Position numbers and translations under genes: made by a program. The notes beneath the pieces were generated by a model. It saw only the letters and a program-made list of their open reading frames with translations. It was not told the DNA's origin and did not search any database. Positions 9,811-34,204 of a stretch of 45,453 nucleotides of DNA are shown one piece after another (the stretch's first letter is position 1; every line of letters starts with the position of its first letter). Source of the stretch: Hyphomicrobiales bacterium. GTDB lineage: Bacteria > Pseudomonadota > Alphaproteobacteria > Rhizobiales > Devosiaceae. The DNA lies in the NCBI GenBank assembly GCA_027066315.1, contig JAMONZ010000035.1:1-45453 (forward strand). The letters run 5' to 3'.

Positions 9811-10893
9811 TTAGAAGTGAATATGAGAAGAAGAGTTCATATTTTTGCGTGCGCCAGTCCATGTATCAATATGGTGTTTGGTGAATGCTAGACCAGTCAT
9901 ATCAAAAAAGCGACTCCAACCAATACGCTCAATCCACTCGCCCATACGCTCCCAATCTTTTGCGTCTGCTTTATATGCTTCAATAATTTTGCGCACAACA
10001 TCAGCAACTTCAGGCCAGCGAGGGGCATTATTTGGCAGGTTAGCAATTGCTAGCTTATGAAATGTTGGTTTTGAGCGAGCATTTGAGTGTTTTCCGCCAA
10101 CCCAAATAGCAATTTTGGTTGATTCTTGTGAATTGATTTGCATTGGTGGGCAAGGAGGATAACAAGCACCACAACAAATACATTTTTTCTCATCAATCTC
10201 AAGCGATGCTTTTCCATTTACCATTGCAGGTCGAATGGCCGCAACTGGGCAACGAGCCACAACAGCAGGTCGCTCGCAAACGTTTGCTACTTGATCGTGA
10301 TTAATTTTTGGTGGTTTGGTATATTGCACATTAATTGCAATATCACCCTGCCCGCCACAATTTATCTGACAGCAAGATGTAGTAATTCTTACCCTATTAG
10401 GCATACGCTCTTGAATAAATTCTTTATGTAAATAATCCATCAGGCTTTTAACAACGCCAGAAGCATCTGTGCCAGGAATATCACAATGCAGCCAACCTTG
10501 AGTATGCGAAATCATCGAAACAGAAGCACCAGTACCACCAACAGGGAAGCCAGCATTGCCCAGAGCTTCAATTAACGGGTCAACCTTTGCTTTATCTGCA
10601 ACCATATATTCGATATTTGAGCGTGTTGTAAAACGCACATGACCATCGGCATATTCATCGCCAATATCGCATAAAGTGCGAATGGTGAATACGTCCATCT
10701 GACGTTGTGTGCCAGCACGAACGGTAAAAATCTCATCACCCGTTTTACTCACATGGCGTAATACGCCTGCTCTTGGGCGTTCGTGCCAATCCCATTGCCC
10801 ATGATTTTTCCTCATCACTGGGTGCATATATTGCATGTGATCTGGCACACCTACTTCGTCGGCTGTGCGTGGTTTTTCTTGAACTTCATTCAT
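9811..10893 (-). CDS. dsrB: Reverse dissimilatory sulfite reductase, beta subunit
   Basis: A 360-residue DsrB. A siroheme/[4Fe-4S] motif region includes TTSCCQINCGGQGD (C174, C175, C179), and the inserted ferredoxin domain has CERP...CPVAAIRP and CICCGACYPPCPP (238-250). The C-terminus continues to SSHIHF. With DsrA it forms the alpha2beta2 enzyme that oxidizes DsrC-bound sulfur to sulfite in the cytoplasm. It lies 51 bp after dsrA; that spacer contains a short inverted repeat, ACTCAAA (10909-10915) with TTTGAGT (10933-10939). A GGGAG ribosome site precedes the ATG. Confidence 0.97.
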   Translation of the reverse strand: MNEVQEKPRTADEVGVPDHMQYMHPVMRKNHGQWDWHERPRAGVLRHVSKTGDEIFTVRAGTQRQMDVFTIRTLCDIGDEYADGHVRFTTRSNIEYMVADKAKVDPLIEALGNAGFPVGGTGASVSMISHTQGWLHCDIPGTDASGVVKSLMDYLHKEFIQERMPNRVRITTSCCQINCGGQGDIAINVQYTKPPKINHDQVANVCERPAVVARCPVAAIRPAMVNGKASLEIDEKKCICCGACYPPCPPMQINSQESTKIAIWVGGKHSNARSKPTFHKLAIANLPNNAPRWPEVADVVRKIIEAYKADAKDWERMGEWIERIGWSRFFDMTGLAFTKHHIDTWTGARKNMNSSSHIHF

Positions 10894-10944
10894 AAATTCA
10901 TCTCCCTAACTCAAATCAAATATTAAAATATCTTTGAGTAATCC

Positions 10945-12237
10945 TTATTCAGTATTAAGTGTTAGGCCTTCTTTTTGCGCTTTGCGCTCAAACCATTTGG
11001 CTGCCTCTTCATCAAAATCATCAGTTCTAACATAAGAAGATGTCCTTGGATGATTGACCATATTCGGATCTGCTAGAACGCCAACAGCATCAAGAAACGC
11101 TGGTAAACCAATGCGATCAATCGTTTCACCAATCCGCTCATGCTCAAGCGCATTATCGGCAAAAAATTCAATGCATGTTTCAGCAAACTCTTCTAGCTTT
11201 TCATAATCTTCATCGGTATCTAACTTGATGAACGGTAAAACCATTATACCCATCATATCACCAACTTTTAGCGAGCGTTTGCCGCCAATCATGACAGACG
11301 CACCACGATCATCTCCGGGTGAGAGAGCTTTTGTCATCACATTGATACAATGCATACAACGCACACAGCTCTTATTATCAACATCAAGCGTATCATCATC
11401 ATTAAGCGAAAGCGCACGAGTTGGACACATAGAAATCACTGTATCAATGGTGTATTTACGTCCCTTTTTAGCGATATGGGCTTTTACTTCTTCTTGATTG
11501 ACCTTCATATCGTCACGCCAAGTGCCAATAACGGCAAAATCAGCACGCTGAATTGAATTCACGCAATCATTACCGCAACCAGAAAATTTAAATTTAAACT
11601 TATACGGCAATGCTGGACGGTGCATCTCGTCTATGAATTTGTTGATTATACCACGATGAACACGCCCCTCATCATAACAGGACTGCTCGCAACGTGCTTT
11701 TCCAACGCAAGACATAGCGGTGCGAAGCGCAGGACCTGCTCCACCAAGATCAAAGCCAAGTTTGTTTAATTCATCAAACGCAATTTGGGTGTTTTCTGTT
11801 GTACAACCTTGGAACATAATATCTCCAGATTGACCATGAAAAGCAATAAGGCCAGAGCCATGTTCTTCCCATATATCGCAAAATTTGCGTAAAATATCTG
11901 TGGTATAATGAAATCCCGGAGGGGGCATAATACGTAAAGTATGAAATTCTTTTGACTGTGGGAATTCTTCAGCAACTTCAGAAAAACGAGGAATAACACC
12001 GCCGCCATATCCAAAAACGGAAAGTGTGCCGCCTTTCCAAAAACCTTTGCGCTCATCGTAAGAACGCTCCAACTGACCCAAAAGATCATTCACCATTGGC
12101 GCATATTGCTCACCCTCGGCATCACGAAGTTTTTTAAGACCAGTTACAAAACTCGGCCATGGGCCGCTCTCTAATTCATCAAGATGAGGTGTTGCGTGCG
12201 AACCTGCATCACCATTAGTTTTATTTCCATCTACCAT
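10945..12237 (-). CDS. dsrA: Reverse dissimilatory sulfite reductase, alpha subunit
   Basis: A 430-residue DsrA with the siroheme-[4Fe-4S] ligand pattern C-x5-C (C177, C183) and C-x3-C (C221, C225), and a ferredoxin insert with CPTRAL (C271) and CVRCMHC (C291, C294, C297). The substrate-channel arginines and lysines (KFKFKFSGCGNDC region) are conserved. It is the first gene of the dsr operon; GGGAGG lies about eight bases before the ATG. Oxidative assignment rests on the accompanying dsrEFH and dsrL genes, not on phylogeny, which would need a tree with reductive and oxidative DsrAB. Confidence 0.97.
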   Translation of the reverse strand: MVDGNKTNGDAGSHATPHLDELESGPWPSFVTGLKKLRDAEGEQYAPMVNDLLGQLERSYDERKGFWKGGTLSVFGYGGGVIPRFSEVAEEFPQSKEFHTLRIMPPPGFHYTTDILRKFCDIWEEHGSGLIAFHGQSGDIMFQGCTTENTQIAFDELNKLGFDLGGAGPALRTAMSCVGKARCEQSCYDEGRVHRGIINKFIDEMHRPALPYKFKFKFSGCGNDCVNSIQRADFAVIGTWRDDMKVNQEEVKAHIAKKGRKYTIDTVISMCPTRALSLNDDDTLDVDNKSCVRCMHCINVMTKALSPGDDRGASVMIGGKRSLKVGDMMGIMVLPFIKLDTDEDYEKLEEFAETCIEFFADNALEHERIGETIDRIGLPAFLDAVGVLADPNMVNHPRTSSYVRTDDFDEEAAKWFERKAQKEGLTLNTE

Positions 12238-12320
12238 TACAATCCCTCCCGAACTGAAAGTATGATTCGTATAAAGCCAGATTTTGCTTTAAAATGAATC
12301 TAAAATAACATATTCCCTAT

Positions 12321-29069: not shown

Positions 29070-30548
29070 TTAATTATTATCTTGCCTTAATACAAAAGGC
29101 AATAGACTAGGCAGATCATCGGCAATTAACCCCTGCCCGCCAAAGGCAGATCCAGCCTCGCCATGCAAGTATACCCCCGCCATTGCTGCTTTTTTAGCAC
29201 TTAACCCCTGAGCTAACAACCCACCAATAATCCCACTTAAAACATCACCTGAACCAGCCGTGGCTAAATATGGCGGAGCATTATTATTTATCGCCACCTT
29301 GCCATTTGGAGTGGCAATTATTGTATCTGCTCCCTTTAACACAATAGTTGCACCACTAATTTTTGCGGCTAGTCTTGCTTTTTTAACCTTTGATATGTCG
29401 TTTATATCAAATAGTTTGGCAAACTCGCCCATGTGAGGCGTTAGAACCACCTCGCCATAGGACTTAGCTTTTATTGCATCGAATAATATTTGTGGGTTTT
29501 TTGAAAAACTACTCATTCCATCGGCATCAATCACCATGCTTGCACTTGAGTTAAGTGCCGCCAATACCAATTTTTGTGTTCTGCTCCCTACACCTAAGGC
29601 AGGGCCAATAACAATTGAGTTAAATCGCTTGTCTAATAGTATATTTGACAATTCATTAGCGGTTTTTGCTTCAATTAACATGATTGAGCTTAAATGATTG
29701 GCGTGGACTAAAAGGGCTGATTTTTCACCTGCCAGTGTAACTAAGCCAGCCCCAATTCTAAGTGCTGATCTTGCTGCTAATCGTGCTGCACCTGTGTGCA
29801 ATTCATCACCCGAAATTACAATGCAATGCCCTGCATCATATTTATGATTTAAAGGGTTTCGCTTTGGCAACGTCCAAAGGTTTGGCGAGTTTAACCAAGT
29901 ACTTACCTCAATTTTTTGCAAAACTGATTCAACAATTCCAATATCAGCAATGTGCAATTGGTTGCAATATTCTCGCCCCGGTAACAGATAATGCCCTAGT
30001 TTGGGCTTGAAAAAACTAACCGTTTGTTTAGCGATAATGGCAATGCCACGAACCTGCCCAGTTTCACCATCAATGCCTGACGCAATATCAATTGCTACAA
30101 CTGGCAAGCCGCTTTTATTCACTAAATCAATGAAATGAGCCAAATCGCCTTCAATATTTCTATCTAAACCCGTTCCAAACAGTGCATCAACAATTAGATC
30201 AGCATTATTGATAAGGTTAGGGTGCAATATTTTAATTTCGGCTTCATATCTATCAGCATTGATTTTTGCATCGCCTTTAAGGGTGCTTTTATTGCCAAAT
30301 AGTGCCAACTCCACCTGCCAGCCCTGCTGTTTTAAAAGCCGTGCAACAACAAAACCATCACCACCATTATTCCCCGGCCCACAAATAACCAAAACATTAC
30401 ATTTTTGATATGATGCCAAAATCTGCTCAGCAACGACTTGGCCAGCATTTTCCATTAAATCAATGCTAGGCACACCGCCCTTAATAGCCAGCGCATCAGC
30501 CTTGGCCATTTGTTTAGGGGTAAGCAAAATATTCTCATCATCACACAT
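29070..30548 (-). CDS. nnr: Bifunctional NAD(P)HX epimerase / ADP-dependent NAD(P)HX dehydratase
   Basis: A 492-residue fusion. The N-terminal YjeF_N epimerase domain has VICGPGNNGGDGFVVARLL and VDALFGTGLDR. The C-terminal ribokinase-like dehydratase domain has VVLTPHMGEFAKLF, TIVLKGADTII and the signature ATAGSGDVLSGIIGGLLAQG. Together they repair damaged hydrated NADH and NADPH. In related genomes the gene often lies near glnB-glnA, as here, though now separated from them by the restriction-modification insertion, tig and the zur region. Confidence 0.96.
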   Translation of the reverse strand: MCDDENILLTPKQMAKADALAIKGGVPSIDLMENAGQVVAEQILASYQKCNVLVICGPGNNGGDGFVVARLLKQQGWQVELALFGNKSTLKGDAKINADRYEAEIKILHPNLINNADLIVDALFGTGLDRNIEGDLAHFIDLVNKSGLPVVAIDIASGIDGETGQVRGIAIIAKQTVSFFKPKLGHYLLPGREYCNQLHIADIGIVESVLQKIEVSTWLNSPNLWTLPKRNPLNHKYDAGHCIVISGDELHTGAARLAARSALRIGAGLVTLAGEKSALLVHANHLSSIMLIEAKTANELSNILLDKRFNSIVIGPALGVGSRTQKLVLAALNSSASMVIDADGMSSFSKNPQILFDAIKAKSYGEVVLTPHMGEFAKLFDINDISKVKKARLAAKISGATIVLKGADTIIATPNGKVAINNNAPPYLATAGSGDVLSGIIGGLLAQGLSAKKAAMAGVYLHGEAGSAFGGQGLIADDLPSLLPFVLRQDNN

Positions 30549-30580
30549 AATAACTATACCCTAACCCGATTTCCACCAAC

Positions 30581-30621
30581 AAAAAAGGCCTCATCGCAAA
30601 TGGTGAGGCCTTTTTTAATAT
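30581..30621. repeat. Terminator-like direct repeat, copy 1 (left of the restriction-modification genes)
   Basis: This copy matches 32760-32799 at 38 of 41 aligned positions. It contains GGCCTCA (30587-30593) facing TGAGGCC (30604-30610), extended by six As and six Ts, so it can form a 13-bp stem and work as a terminator on either strand. It lies between two divergent genes, nnr and the nuclease gene, where no transcript needs to end, which suggests that it was duplicated. Confidence 0.9.
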
Positions 30622-30702
30622 CTTGCAATACTTAGAGGCAAGAATCAGATAAAAGAAAATATAAGTGTTTAAAGTTCATATTTATGAGAAAGGAGAAATT
30701 GA

Positions 30703-31461
30703 ATGAGTGAGTATAATCTGGGCTTTATCAGCGATGAAGATATTTTCGAACATGTTCTTGACACTGTAAAAAAATACAGAATTTCTCCTAGTTCGGTCAA
30801 TCTTAAAAAATTCAATAAAAACCTCATAGACCCCATAAAACTTACTTTTGATTCTAAAGTTTATAGCCAAGACTTAACTGATATTGTTGAAAATGAAATT
30901 TTACGTCAAATAGACAAAACAAACAATAATCATATTGGGTATTTTCATCAAAATATTTTTAAATATTTTGGAAATGGCTGGATAGTTCCACAGAGAGGAT
31001 ATGATTTAGAAAATGAAAATGAAAACTTTTTTGTGGAGCTAAAAAACAAACACAATACTATGAATTCATCGTCATCACAAAAAACCTATATAAAAATGCA
31101 AGATAGTATTTTGAGAAACGATAAAGCAATATGCATGTTAGTAGAAGTTATTGCAAAAAAAAGTCAAAATATTACTTGGCGGATAAGTTTAAATGGCGAA
31201 CCATTTGCCAATAATAGAATTCGTAGAGTTTCAATTGATAAATTTTATGAATTGGTTAGCGGTGATAAGCATGCATTTAAAAAACTATGTGAAAAACTCC
31301 CCCAAATAATATCTGATGCAGTAAGCAGTTTAGATGAGCTTGTAGCGCAAAATAGCGTTATGGAAGAATTAAACGCAATTTCACCTAATCTTTTAAAAAG
31401 TCTATATCTTTTGTCATTTCAAAAATATGAGGGGTTTAATGAGTTTAAGGTTGAGCAATAA
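30703..31461 (+). CDS. Type II restriction endonuclease, Eco47II-like (predicted GGNCC)
   Basis: A 252-residue protein recognised as an Eco47II-family endonuclease from its whole-length pattern, notably LGFISDEDIFEHV, NKNLIDPIKLTFDSKVY, NNHIGYFHQNIFKY and KNKHNTMNSSSSQKTY. A PD-(D/E)xK-type site is visible as D101 and E112-x-K114 (GYDLENENENFFVELK). Eco47II cuts GGNCC; specificity here is inferred from family. AAAGGAG precedes the ATG, and the stop overlaps the methyltransferase start by one base (TAATG). The gene is plus-strand within a minus-strand block and probably acquired. Confidence 0.9.
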   Translation: MSEYNLGFISDEDIFEHVLDTVKKYRISPSSVNLKKFNKNLIDPIKLTFDSKVYSQDLTDIVENEILRQIDKTNNNHIGYFHQNIFKYFGNGWIVPQRGYDLENENENFFVELKNKHNTMNSSSSQKTYIKMQDSILRNDKAICMLVEVIAKKSQNITWRISLNGEPFANNRIRRVSIDKFYELVSGDKHAFKKLCEKLPQIISDAVSSLDELVAQNSVMEELNAISPNLLKSLYLLSFQKYEGFNEFKVEQ

Positions 31462-32759
31462 TGAAAAATAATACTCACTCACTTGCCCAAGTTGCTGATA
31501 TTTTATCCGTTAGTAAATCTATCATTCAAAAATGGGAAAATAACAAAAAACTTATCCCTTCAATAAATCCAACAACAGGTGATAAAGAATATAGCAGTGC
31601 GCAAATTATGAAATTTGAGCAAGCAAAAGCTATGTTTAATGGAGAATGGGATAAAGAAACAAAAATAACACCCCTTAAACAGTATAATTGCATAGAGTTG
31701 TTCGCTGGGGCTGGTGGTCTGGCACTTGGCTTAGAAAAATCAGGGCTTCATACAAAGATGCTAAATGAGATAGATCGTCACGCTTGTGCGACCCTCAAAA
31801 AAAACAGACCAAACTGGAATGTTATTGAAGGTGATATTGCAAAGATTGATTTCAATCAATATTTTAATAAAATTGATGTTTTATCTGGTGGTTTCCCCTG
31901 CCAAGCATTCTCCTATGCTGGGAAAAAACTAGGGCTTGAAGACACCAGAGGAACGTTATTCTTTGAGTTTGGCAGGGCTATAAAAGAAATTTCTCCTAAG
32001 ATTTTTATAGCAGAGAATGTCAAGGGCTTAGCTTCGCATGACAATGGGCGAACACTTGAAACCATCAAACAAGTTTTTGGTGACTTAGGTTATAGTTTAG
32101 TCGAGCCAAAGATATTAAAGGCAATTTTTTATCAAGTACCGCAAAAAAGAGAACGGCTAATTTTGATTGGAATTAGAAATGACCTCGCCCATCTTGCTAA
32201 TTTTTCTTGGCCATCTCCTTATACTAGAATAATGACGCTTAAAGACGCACTTAAAAAAGGAAAATTATACGATTGTGATGTTCCCAAATCACAAGGACAA
32301 ATATACCCAAAGAGAAAAGAGGAAATCTTAAGAAATGTGCCGCAAGGTGGGTATTGGAGGGATTTACCTGATGTTTTACAAAGAGAGTATATGCAAAAAA
32401 GCTATTTTCTTGGAGGAGGCAAAACAGGCATGGCTCGACGATTATCATGGGAAGAGCCCAGCCTTACATTAACTTGCTCACCTGCGCAAAAACAAACAGA
32501 GAGATGTCACCCAGAAGAAACACGCCCTCTTACAGTTAGAGAGTATGCAAGAGTGCAAACATTTCCTGATAGTTGGGAATTTATGGGATCTATTAGTAAT
32601 CAATACAAGCAAATAGGTAATGCAGTTCCTATTAATTTAGCGTATGCGATTGGCAGGTCTTTAATAAAAATACTAAATGATATTCACCTTGCTGAAATTC
32701 AAAACCTTGAGCAAATAGAAAATTTATCAAAATCAACTACTAATCATTCAAATCACTAA
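31461..32759 (+). CDS. DNA (cytosine-5) methyltransferase with N-terminal MerR-like HTH
   Basis: A 432-residue m5C methyltransferase partnering the upstream nuclease. Motif I is IELFAGAGGLALGLE (from 78), motif IV GGFPCQAFS with catalytic C147, motif VI AENVKGL, motif VIII QKRERLILIGIR, motif IX LTVREYARVQTFPDSW and motif X QIGNAVP. Residues about 5-55 resemble a MerR-type helix-turn-helix (LAQVADILSVSKSIIQKWENNKKL), absent from minimal enzymes. Such extensions can repress the enzyme's own operon, which would control the balance with the nuclease. Methylation protects GGNCC sites if the family assignment holds. Confidence 0.92.
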   Translation: MKNNTHSLAQVADILSVSKSIIQKWENNKKLIPSINPTTGDKEYSSAQIMKFEQAKAMFNGEWDKETKITPLKQYNCIELFAGAGGLALGLEKSGLHTKMLNEIDRHACATLKKNRPNWNVIEGDIAKIDFNQYFNKIDVLSGGFPCQAFSYAGKKLGLEDTRGTLFFEFGRAIKEISPKIFIAENVKGLASHDNGRTLETIKQVFGDLGYSLVEPKILKAIFYQVPQKRERLILIGIRNDLAHLANFSWPSPYTRIMTLKDALKKGKLYDCDVPKSQGQIYPKRKEEILRNVPQGGYWRDLPDVLQREYMQKSYFLGGGKTGMARRLSWEEPSLTLTCSPAQKQTERCHPEETRPLTVREYARVQTFPDSWEFMGSISNQYKQIGNAVPINLAYAIGRSLIKILNDIHLAEIQNLEQIENLSKSTTNHSNH

Positions 32760-32799
32760 AAAAAAGACCTCATCGCAAATGGTGAGGCCTTTTTAGTAT
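32760..32799 (-). terminator. Terminator of tig; direct repeat copy 2 (right of the restriction-modification genes)
   Basis: On the minus strand GGCCTCA (32789-32783) pairs with TGAGGTC (32772-32766), one G-U included, then U7 or more. It lies about 20 bp after the tig stop, so this is its natural terminator. On the plus strand the same stem has an A-C mismatch but could still end the restriction-modification transcript. Confidence 0.88.
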
Positions 32800-32818
32800 T
32801 TAAGGATACTTCGAAGAG

Positions 32819-34204
32819 TTAGTGATTATGTTCTTGTGGCACGTCGTCATCTTCTTCGTCTTTTTTGATCATTTCAGCCAATTCTTCACGAGTAACTTTT
32901 TTCTCGGTTTTGTTGGCTAATTCTGTAACAAACTCGACTACTTTATTTTCAAAAATTGGAGCGCGTAGGCCTGCTACTGCTTCTGGATTTTTGCGATAAT
33001 AGTCGTAAACTTCTTGTTCTTGTCCGGGGAAGCGTTGTACTTCAGCTATTAGGGCTTGTTGCAATTCTTCTTCTGCAATTTCAATTTTATTCACAGTTCC
33101 AACTTCAGCAACAACAAGACCTAGACGAACTCTACGCTCTGCAATACGGCCATATTGCTCCTTTGCTTTTTCTTCTGTTGTGCCTTCGTCTTCAAAAGAT
33201 TTTCCATGCTCTTTAATTTCGTGTGTTACACGCTCCCAAATTGCATTAAATTCAGCTTCAACCAAACCTTCTGGAACATCAAGTTTATGACCTTCATCTA
33301 GTGCATCAAGCACTTGGCGCTTAACACGCTGAGAACCCATGCTATTTAAAGCATTTGCCATTTGGTCTTTTATTGCCGTGCGAAGAGCAGCTAAATCGTC
33401 TAGTCCAAGAGTTTTTGCAAATTCATCGTCTGCTTTGCCCTCTTTTGGAGCATCAACATGAAGAATTTCAACATCAAATGTTGCATCTTTTCCAGCAAGT
33501 TTATCGCTAGAGTAATCTTTTGGGAAAGTTACATTGATTACGCCCTTATCGCCCTTTTTCATGCCGATAAGTTTATCTTCAAAACCTGGAATAAAGTCAC
33601 CAGAGCCAATTACTAGGTGAGAATGATCGGCTTTGCCGCCATCAAACGGCACGCCATCAATTTTACCTTCAAAATTAAGACCAACCTTGTCGCCATCTGC
33701 AATAACACCCTTATCGCCTTTGTCTTCATATTGACGTTGGTTAAGATAAAGACGCTCAAGTTCCGTATCGACTTCTTTCTCTTCAATATCAACAACTGGC
33801 TGCTCGATTTCTACTTTTTTAAAGTCCATCAATTTAATTTTAGGAAGAATTTCATAAGAAATATCAAAAATTAGGTCATCAACACCGTCCATAACTTTTT
33901 CGATATTGCTTTTTTCTTCGTCTAGATCAATTTTTGGCTGCATTGCAGCTTTTTCTTCACGCTTCTCAAGATTTTCAGTAACGCTTTTATTGATTTCTTC
34001 TTGCACAACTTCAGACATTGTTGAGCGACCATAGACTTTTTTTAGATGAGAAAGTGGCACTTTACCTGGTCTAAAACCTTTAATCGTGGCTTTTTCTTTT
34101 ACCTCGCCTAGCTTTGCGTCAAGACGTGTTTGCAAATGTTTTGCTGGTATTTTAACGTTTAATTTGCGCTTTAGGCCTTCGTTAAGTGTTTCTGTAACCT
34201 TCAT
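32819..34204 (-). CDS. tig: Trigger factor, ribosome-associated chaperone and prolyl isomerase
   Basis: A 461-residue trigger factor. The ribosome-binding signature is GFRPGKVPLSHLKKVYG (41-57), followed by an FKBP-like domain with DGDKVGLNFEGKIDGVPFDGGKADHSHLVIGSGDFIPGFEDKLIGMKKG-type sequence around 165-215 and a helical C-terminal domain. It binds nascent chains at the exit tunnel. The C-terminus is acidic then His-containing (DEEDDDVPQEHNH). It is followed by the duplicated terminator and preceded by tRNA-Leu on the same strand. Confidence 0.96.
   Translation of the reverse strand: MKVTETLNEGLKRKLNVKIPAKHLQTRLDAKLGEVKEKATIKGFRPGKVPLSHLKKVYGRSTMSEVVQEEINKSVTENLEKREEKAAMQPKIDLDEEKSNIEKVMDGVDDLIFDISYEILPKIKLMDFKKVEIEQPVVDIEEKEVDTELERLYLNQRQYEDKGDKGVIADGDKVGLNFEGKIDGVPFDGGKADHSHLVIGSGDFIPGFEDKLIGMKKGDKGVINVTFPKDYSSDKLAGKDATFDVEILHVDAPKEGKADDEFAKTLGLDDLAALRTAIKDQMANALNSMGSQRVKRQVLDALDEGHKLDVPEGLVEAEFNAIWERVTHEIKEHGKSFEDEGTTEEKAKEQYGRIAERRVRLGLVVAEVGTVNKIEIAEEELQQALIAEVQRFPGQEQEVYDYYRKNPEAVAGLRAPIFENKVVEFVTELANKTEKKVTREELAEMIKKDEEDDDVPQEHNH

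What the first reader, a model, noticed from the sequence alone, without database searches (positions are those of the whole stretch)
30581..32818. Restriction-modification unit bracketed by duplicated copies of the tig terminator
Two plus-strand genes (nuclease, methyltransferase) sit in a long minus-strand block. Near-identical 40-bp sequences flank them: 30581-30621 and 32760-32799 match at 38 of 41 positions, and weaker similarity (such as a shared ATACTT) continues towards the tig stop. The right copy is the natural tig terminator: on the minus strand its single substitution gives a G-U pair, whereas on the plus strand it is an A-C mismatch. The left copy sits between divergent genes, where no terminator is needed. 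Best reading: ancestral order tig-terminator-nnr, with the cassette inserted and the terminator duplicated. Terminators as insertion or recombination points for restriction systems are worth a systematic look.
Basis: partly seen in the sequence, partly recalled or inferred. Interest (0 to 1): 0.7.

Follow-up and report, generated by a model that had tools for sequence, protein, structure and literature searches.

The report
Restriction genes inserted, tig terminator duplicated
A restriction-modification gene pair sits between two housekeeping genes that are normally neighbours, and the transcription stop signal at that spot is now present on both sides of it; some related gene pairs in other bacteria are flanked by similar duplications, and in one case the two copies keep matching each other over time.

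Summary
The reading is supported. Of 20 family members with tig and nnr adjacent, 17 have one terminator hairpin, 3 none by a strict rule, 0 two. The left copy keeps the ancestral nnr-side flank, the right copy the tig side. The closest relative, G003, has the insertion with the nuclease gene deleted and the left repeat decayed. [quoted passage not shown]

The survey adds two things. Of 60 scorable loci of this nuclease family, 8 (7 insertions) have long flanking repeats, against 0 of 334 control segments; in 5 of the 7 the repeat lies at a host gene's 3' end, so a terminator as such is not the rule. And in one species pair sharing an insertion, the repeats match at 87/87 and 84/87 within genomes but 73-74/87 between them: they evolve in concert. 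The window pair fits that, less strongly. How such units enter without a recombinase remains unknown.

The parts
29070..30548 (-). nnr, NAD(P)H-hydrate epimerase/dehydratase, the ancestral downstream neighbour of tig
   Evidence: Pfam YjeF_N and Carb_kinase; within 600 bp of tig in 20 of 29 family loci
30581..30621 (.). left repeat: terminator-like hairpin with perfect 13-bp arms (by eye); nnr-side flank TTTTTTGTTGG is ancestral
   Evidence: 38/41 to the right copy; flank shared with G002/G004 and, shorter, G001; fold -19.2/-22.5
30622..30702 (+). inner flank and 5' region of the nuclease gene; contains TTTATCTGATTCT (minus strand), kept in G003
   Evidence: alignment with the G003 remnant
30703..31461 (+). 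Eco47II-type restriction endonuclease, 252 aa, open reading frame
   Evidence: PF09553 E 6.6e-88; PADLOC REase_II
31461..32759 (+). C5 cytosine DNA methyltransferase, 432 aa; stop codon abuts the right repeat; weak N-terminal HTH match below the Pfam cut-off
   Evidence: PF00145 E 4e-89; FAGAGG, PCQ, ENV present (motif names recalled)
32760..32799 (.). right repeat: the tig terminator in its native place, shared with the convergent methyltransferase
   Evidence: hairpin in both directions, -14.5/-14.6; position as in relatives
32819..34204 (-). tig, trigger factor
   Evidence: Pfam Trigger_N, Trigger_C, FKBP_C

Best explanation
An Eco47II-type restriction-modification gene pair was inserted between tig and nnr, most likely in an ancestor shared with G003, and the roughly 40-bp tig terminator at the insertion point was duplicated, so that tig kept its terminator (right copy) and nnr kept its upstream sequence (left copy). 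Shown: the empty site with one terminator, the two copies, the native flank on each side, and a decayed equivalent in G003. Inferred: the insertion was a long-target-duplication event of the kind described for restriction-modification systems, made by host-mediated illegitimate recombination, since the interval holds no other ORF of 80 aa or more. Inferred with less certainty: the two copies in the window stay nearly identical because they still exchange sequence (gene conversion, or amplification and contraction by unequal crossing-over), as seen more clearly in the G587/G1174 pair.
For: Repeat 38/41, unique in the genome, score 65 against control maximum 25. Empty sites: 17 of 20 adjacent pairs with one hairpin, none with two. 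Left copy continues into TTTTTTGTTGG as in G002/G004, right copy into the tig end. G003: methyltransferase 86% identical at the same site, no nuclease hit by tblastn, only its last codons by eye plus the upstream TTTATCTGATTCT, and a second terminator lacking its 5' arm. PF09553 absent from the other 396 of 397 genomes sampled in the order. Long direct repeats flank 8 of 60 scorable loci (7 insertions) against 0 of 334 control segments, Fisher p 1.9e-7 with all 8 counted. Concerted evolution: G587 copies 87/87, G1174 copies 84/87, between species 73-74/87, 12 species-specific positions shared by both copies, while unit and flanks diverge alike (unit 85-87%, flanks 82%).
Against: 51 of 60 scorable loci score below 40 and one more (L054) is a repetitive element, so duplication is not universal or decays fast. 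Fourfold sites between G000 and G003 are 37-58% identical, near saturation for some genes, so a 35-of-37 match of two copies at least that old is not expected under independent neutral change; it needs selection, exchange, or a younger event in G000. The concerted-evolution case rests on one species pair, and the first G1174 copy begins at base 1 of its contig. The nearest outside unit, L051, has no flanking repeat. No donor was found.
Confidence: 0.82

Rival explanations
1. Independent insertions at the same place: G003 received its unit earlier and G000 more recently, so the near-identity of the window repeats simply shows youth and the tig terminator is a hot spot.
For: Window copies are far more alike (35 of 37 columns) than the G000 and G003 tig terminators (28 of 36); the shared TTTATCTGATTCT could belong to the unit itself. 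The tig-nnr junction also holds 4.2 kb of other genes in G013.
Against: The methyltransferase (86% aa, fourfold identity 0.37) is as diverged as nnr (0.39) and more than tig (0.58) or clpP (0.56), as descent from the common ancestor allows. The 19 nt next to the window repeats look homologous but diverged (12/19, p 0.0016 in a fixed register; not significant by free alignment), which a young duplication would not give.
Confidence: 0.25
2. Campbell-type integration: a circular DNA carrying the gene pair and a copy of the target recombined with the resident target, giving the same direct-repeat structure without a staggered cut.
For: L067 and L085 show transfer of a unit between species with one end of the near-identical tract inside the repeat. 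L063 has GH127-unit-GH127 3' end while L072 has unit-GH127, an arrangement that tandem duplication or circle integration would explain.
Against: It needs a donor already joined to the target, so it explains spread better than origin. No such donor was found for the tig site.
Confidence: 0.25
3. Decayed integrative element with attL/attR at a gene 3' end, mobilised by an integrase in trans.
For: The target is a 3' end, as for many integrases (recalled).
Against: The repeats of the different loci show no common sequence by eye and run from about 40 to 187 bp; the window interval holds only the two genes among ORFs of 80 aa or more; gene orders of the units differ.
Confidence: 0.05
4. Chance: two similar terminators of a common type.
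For: AAGGCC-type hairpins follow tig in several relatives.
Against: The loop is identical as well, the core is unique in 2 Mb, and none of 20 relatives has two hairpins.
Confidence: 0.02

Closest known systems
Insertion of restriction-modification systems with long target duplication (Nobusato et al. 2000 Gene 259:99; Furuta et al. 2010 NAR 38:2428)
   Same: A restriction-modification unit between direct repeats of the target; [quoted passage not shown] The two original papers were not read (Furuta not held; Nobusato not looked up).
   Different: Here the duplicated target is a transcription terminator, about 40 bp; and repeats of a related unit evolve in concert.
Eco47II-type (PF09553) restriction-modification systems
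   Same: Same nuclease family, adjacent C5 methyltransferase.
   Different: Specificity not tested; GGNCC is recalled for Eco47II. GGNCC is low in the window (32 found, 59 expected) but so are CCNGG (33, 63), CGNCG (31, 53) and GANTC (41, 99), so this says nothing.
Tandem amplification of restriction-modification units between direct repeats
   Same: Direct repeats allow unequal crossing-over (stated in PMC3031569, passage).
   Different: The window interval holds a single copy of the gene pair.

Membership tests
RM insertion with long target duplication | empty site with one copy of the target in relatives | tested here: met
   of 20 tig-nnr junctions 17 have one hairpin, 3 none by strict rule, 0 two
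RM insertion with long target duplication | direct repeats of the target at both ends of the unit | tested here: met
   38/41
RM insertion with long target duplication | outer flanks of each copy are the native ones | tested here: met
   TTTTTTGTTGG on the nnr side, tig end on the other
RM insertion with long target duplication | repeat length of the order of 100 bp | tested here: inconclusive
   about 40 bp, perhaps 60 with the weak flank; described as variable
RM insertion with long target duplication | movement observed in the laboratory | not testable with these tools
   sequence only
Eco47II-type restriction-modification system | PF09553 nuclease next to a C5 methyltransferase | tested here: met
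Eco47II-type restriction-modification system | cleavage and methylation at GGNCC | not testable with these tools
   word counts uninformative
Integrase-borne element (attL/attR) | recombinase gene within the element | tested here: not met
   only the nuclease and methyltransferase among ORFs of 80 aa or more between nnr and tig
Integrase-borne element (attL/attR) | common att core in related elements | tested here: inconclusive
   repeats printed share no core by eye; no formal motif search was run

The most novel reading that the evidence does not exclude
The repeats left by insertion are not scars but working recombination sites: while the nuclease is live, ongoing exchange between them (gene conversion, or amplification and collapse of the unit) keeps the two copies alike, and once the nuclease dies they drift apart. 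Post hoc and with few cases: repeats beside intact nucleases are 93-100% alike (window 38/41, L060 152/162, L063 106/109, L067 82/85, L068 57/60, L121 87/87, L174 84/87), those beside damaged ones 88-90% or decayed (L086 65/74, L133 169/187, G003). L085 is an exception (67/73 with an open nuclease frame), put down to import. Units without any detectable repeat also include open nuclease frames (not counted), which this reading must lay to other modes of entry.
Probability: 0.33. Interest if true: 0.72.

Novelty: new member of a known kind. Interest (0 to 1): 0.5.

Why it matters
How restriction-modification genes move without a transposase is, to my knowledge, an open question. A unit with a clean empty site, a sister species carrying the same insertion in decay, and a survey in which about one locus in eight keeps long flanking repeats give material to test it. 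If the repeats do evolve in concert, the units are in continual recombination at their ends, which would fit the view of these genes as selfish elements that amplify or resist loss. It also shows how an insertion can leave both neighbours intact, even where, as at parB-DUF5683 in L067, the two reading frames overlap.

Tried and rejected
Chance similarity of terminators was rejected. Avoidance of GGNCC as a sign of long residence was rejected because CCNGG, CGNCG and GANTC are as low. L054 was set aside as a repetitive element because controls in the same locus score as high. The scores of 32-39 (L132, L127, L073, L153, L129, L077) overlap the control range, where 12 of 334 segments reach 32. 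Results against: in the looser random-window control, four loci had a control window of 60 or more (L054 82, L076 61, L079 67, L120 329). The unit in the nearest outside relative, L051 (Robiginitomaculum by its title, nuclease 70%, methyltransferase 79%), shows no flanking repeat (score 26, control maximum 32). The attempt to find further species pairs with a shared insertion gave none for L063 and L060, but those searches scored only 3 and 2 candidates per genome, so second copies could be missed.

Rows left out of the survey: 5 of 65 loci lay too close to contig ends (L057, L087, L124, L137, L152). From the G820 hit was not fetched and G424 is L067; G1067, G910 and G996 were not fetched. Three of the 60 scored loci (L081, L082, L136) have no methyltransferase beside the nuclease. 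Seven of 36 same-family relatives gave no tig locus for the junction count. L007's hairpin was missed by the strict rule although it is visible. The output was cut; the loci were listed again.

Full report
What is there. The window is a whole 45,453-bp contig of a 1.99-Mb, 109-contig assembly; I take it for an alphaproteobacterium from gene content, which no call states. Between nnr (29070-30548, minus) and tig (32819-34204, minus) lie two plus-strand genes: an Eco47II-type nuclease (PF09553, E 6.6e-88) and a C5 cytosine methyltransferase (PF00145, E 4e-89). The 41 bases at 30581-30621 and the 40 at 32760-32799 align with 38 identities, 2 mismatches and 1 gap. The repeat core is found nowhere else in the genome, and the direct-repeat score across the cassette is 65 against a maximum of 25 in 60 random windows of the same span.

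The empty site. One search covered 60 relatives and gave loci for 29 of the 36 in the same family; these I examined. Twenty have nnr within 600 bp downstream of tig; the space between holds one hairpin with a T tract in 17, none by a strict rule in 3, and two in none. One of the three misses, G001 of the same genus, has a single terminator by eye. The remaining nine are the insertion in G003, a 4.2-kb stretch of other genes in G013, a 781-bp gap in L032, one with a negative computed gap (L028), and five where nnr was not in the fetched stretch (L005, L006, L009, L012, L024). In two of these five, G002 and G004, the tig terminator is followed by other genes. So the ancestral order was tig, one terminator, nnr. 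The left copy in the window continues on the nnr side with TTTTTTGTTGG, as the single terminators of G002 and G004 do, and G001 with a shorter TTTTTGTTG; the right copy sits in the native place behind tig. That is the pattern left by duplication of a target.

The sister species. G003 (tig 88% identical) has the methyltransferase at the same place, 86% identical. No nuclease was found there by tblastn; by eye its last codons remain, and an upstream segment TTTATCTGATTCT is shared with the window. In G001 and G002 the methyltransferase search finds nothing, in G004 two distant matches at 35-41%. Next to nnr, G003 has a sequence that matches the 3' arm and T tract of the terminator but lacks the 5' arm (fold -5.9, against -17.6 for its tig terminator). 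The insertion with its second terminator thus appears older than the G000-G003 split, or struck the same place twice. Fourfold-degenerate identity is 0.37 for the methyltransferase, 0.39 for nnr, 0.56 for clpP and 0.58 for tig, which fits vertical descent with much neutral change. Against that background two copies matching at 35 of 37 columns in G000 are surprising; the tig terminators of G000 and G003 match at 28 of 36.

A wider look. PF09553 is rare in the order (1 of 397 sampled genomes, the window's own), scattered in the phylum (11 of 398, 9 over the cut-off) and commoner in the order of G424 (21 of 393; Bacteroidales by the title of L067). From I had 65 loci; 60 could be scored for direct repeats in 700 bp to the left and 1000 bp to the right of the genes (3 of the 60 have no methyltransferase next to the nuclease). 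Eight reach a score of 100 (L060, L063, L067, L068, L085, L086, L121, L133), against 0 of 334 control segments of one to three neighbouring genes from the same loci (Fisher p 1.9e-7). L067 and L085 are one insertion, so 7 insertions. L054 is a repetitive element, and the other 51 score below 40. A looser control with random windows did give four loci with a window of 60 or more, one at 329.

What is duplicated. In L067/L085 it is the end of parB and the start of the next gene, DUF5683, whose reading frames overlap at the stop; in L086 the end of gyrB; in L063 the end of a GH127 arabinofuranosidase gene; in L068 part of the 3' end of a UbiA-family gene; in L121 the end of an EamA-family gene, the gap, and the start of the next gene. 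L060 and L133 are intergenic. So 5 of 7 lie at a gene's 3' end. In the six other genomes of L067's genus that I fetched, parB and DUF5683 are adjacent with no unit between them. A long duplication lets a unit enter a gene end and leave both genes whole, so the 3'-end preference may be survivorship; terminators as such are not the common target.

Repeats that evolve together. G587 (L121) and G1174 (L174) carry the same insertion at the same place: units 85-87% identical, flanks 82%, inner flanks 70-72%. Within G587 the two 87-bp repeats are identical; within G1174 they match at 84 of 87; between the species at 73-74 of 87, and 12 positions differ between the species but are shared by both copies within each. 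With independent change at the between-species rate, the chance of no difference in 87 is about 7e-7. This is concerted evolution, and the window pair looks the same at lower resolution. One caution: the first G1174 copy begins at base 1 of its contig. Separately, L067 and L085 show a unit carried between species: about 95-100% identity per 150-bp window, mostly 98-99%, from inside the left repeat through the unit, the right repeat and part of the next gene, with flanks at 81-90% on the left and 90% falling to 68% on the right.

Mechanism. Shown: insertion, duplication, native outer flanks, decay in G003. Inferred: entry by host-mediated illegitimate recombination without an own recombinase, then exchange between the repeats. 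I could not tell staggered-end filling from integration of a circle that carried a target copy; the GH127 pair L063/L072, where the same gene lies upstream of the unit in one and downstream in the other, favours circles or tandem duplication in that case. The left copy, the stronger hairpin, may also be kept because it shields nnr from transcription out of the unit; that is untested.

What is known. Papers from the field state that some restriction-modification systems insert with long and variable target duplications, in the order of 100 bp (passages read in PMC3874152 and PMC3031569; related statements, with Helicobacter examples, in PMC4978471 and PMC3154945). The original papers were not read: Furuta 2010 is not held, Nobusato 2000 was not looked up. 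Eight searches, joining restriction-modification with target duplication, terminator, concerted evolution, tandem amplification, Eco47II or gene conversion, and insertion hotspots with terminators, showed in titles and abstract starts no paper on a duplicated terminator at such a unit or on concerted evolution of its repeats. The library is open-access only, the lists were cut to the best 10-15, and the two hits were not opened for this. The window is therefore a new member of a known kind, with one feature, repeats that stay alike, that seems worth pursuing.

Noticed in passing
L067 and L085, about 9895-12260: Two genomes about 85% identical in flanks share the unit plus right repeat at mostly 98-99%: recent transfer between species by homologous recombination, one end of the tract inside the left repeat.
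   Followed up: partly
L121 4401-4487 and 6940-7026; L174 1-87 and 2523-2608: Flanking repeats of a shared insertion are homogenised within each genome but about 15% apart between species.
   Followed up: yes
L063 7393-12610 and L072 834-5666: The same GH127 gene lies upstream of the unit in one and directly downstream in the other, hinting at tandem duplication or circle integration.
   Followed up: partly
L041 4178-5556: Solitary methyltransferase in G003, frame open, with the nuclease gone except for its last codons.
   Followed up: partly
L045 3586-7757: In G013 the same tig-nnr junction holds about 4.2 kb of other genes (a small membrane ORF, an oxidoreductase-like ORF and a large membrane ORF, judged by eye); the best repeat across it scores only 20.
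   Followed up: partly
window 30545-30580: On the minus strand TTGTTG overlapping the left copy's T tract, 18 bases and TATAGT just before the nnr start resemble a promoter for a near-leaderless nnr message; seen by eye only.
   Followed up: no
window 31461-31600: The methyltransferase has a weak N-terminal HTH match below the Pfam cut-off (HTH_19 E 0.0009; HTH_19 and MerR_1 in the G003 protein), which might regulate the pair.
   Followed up: no
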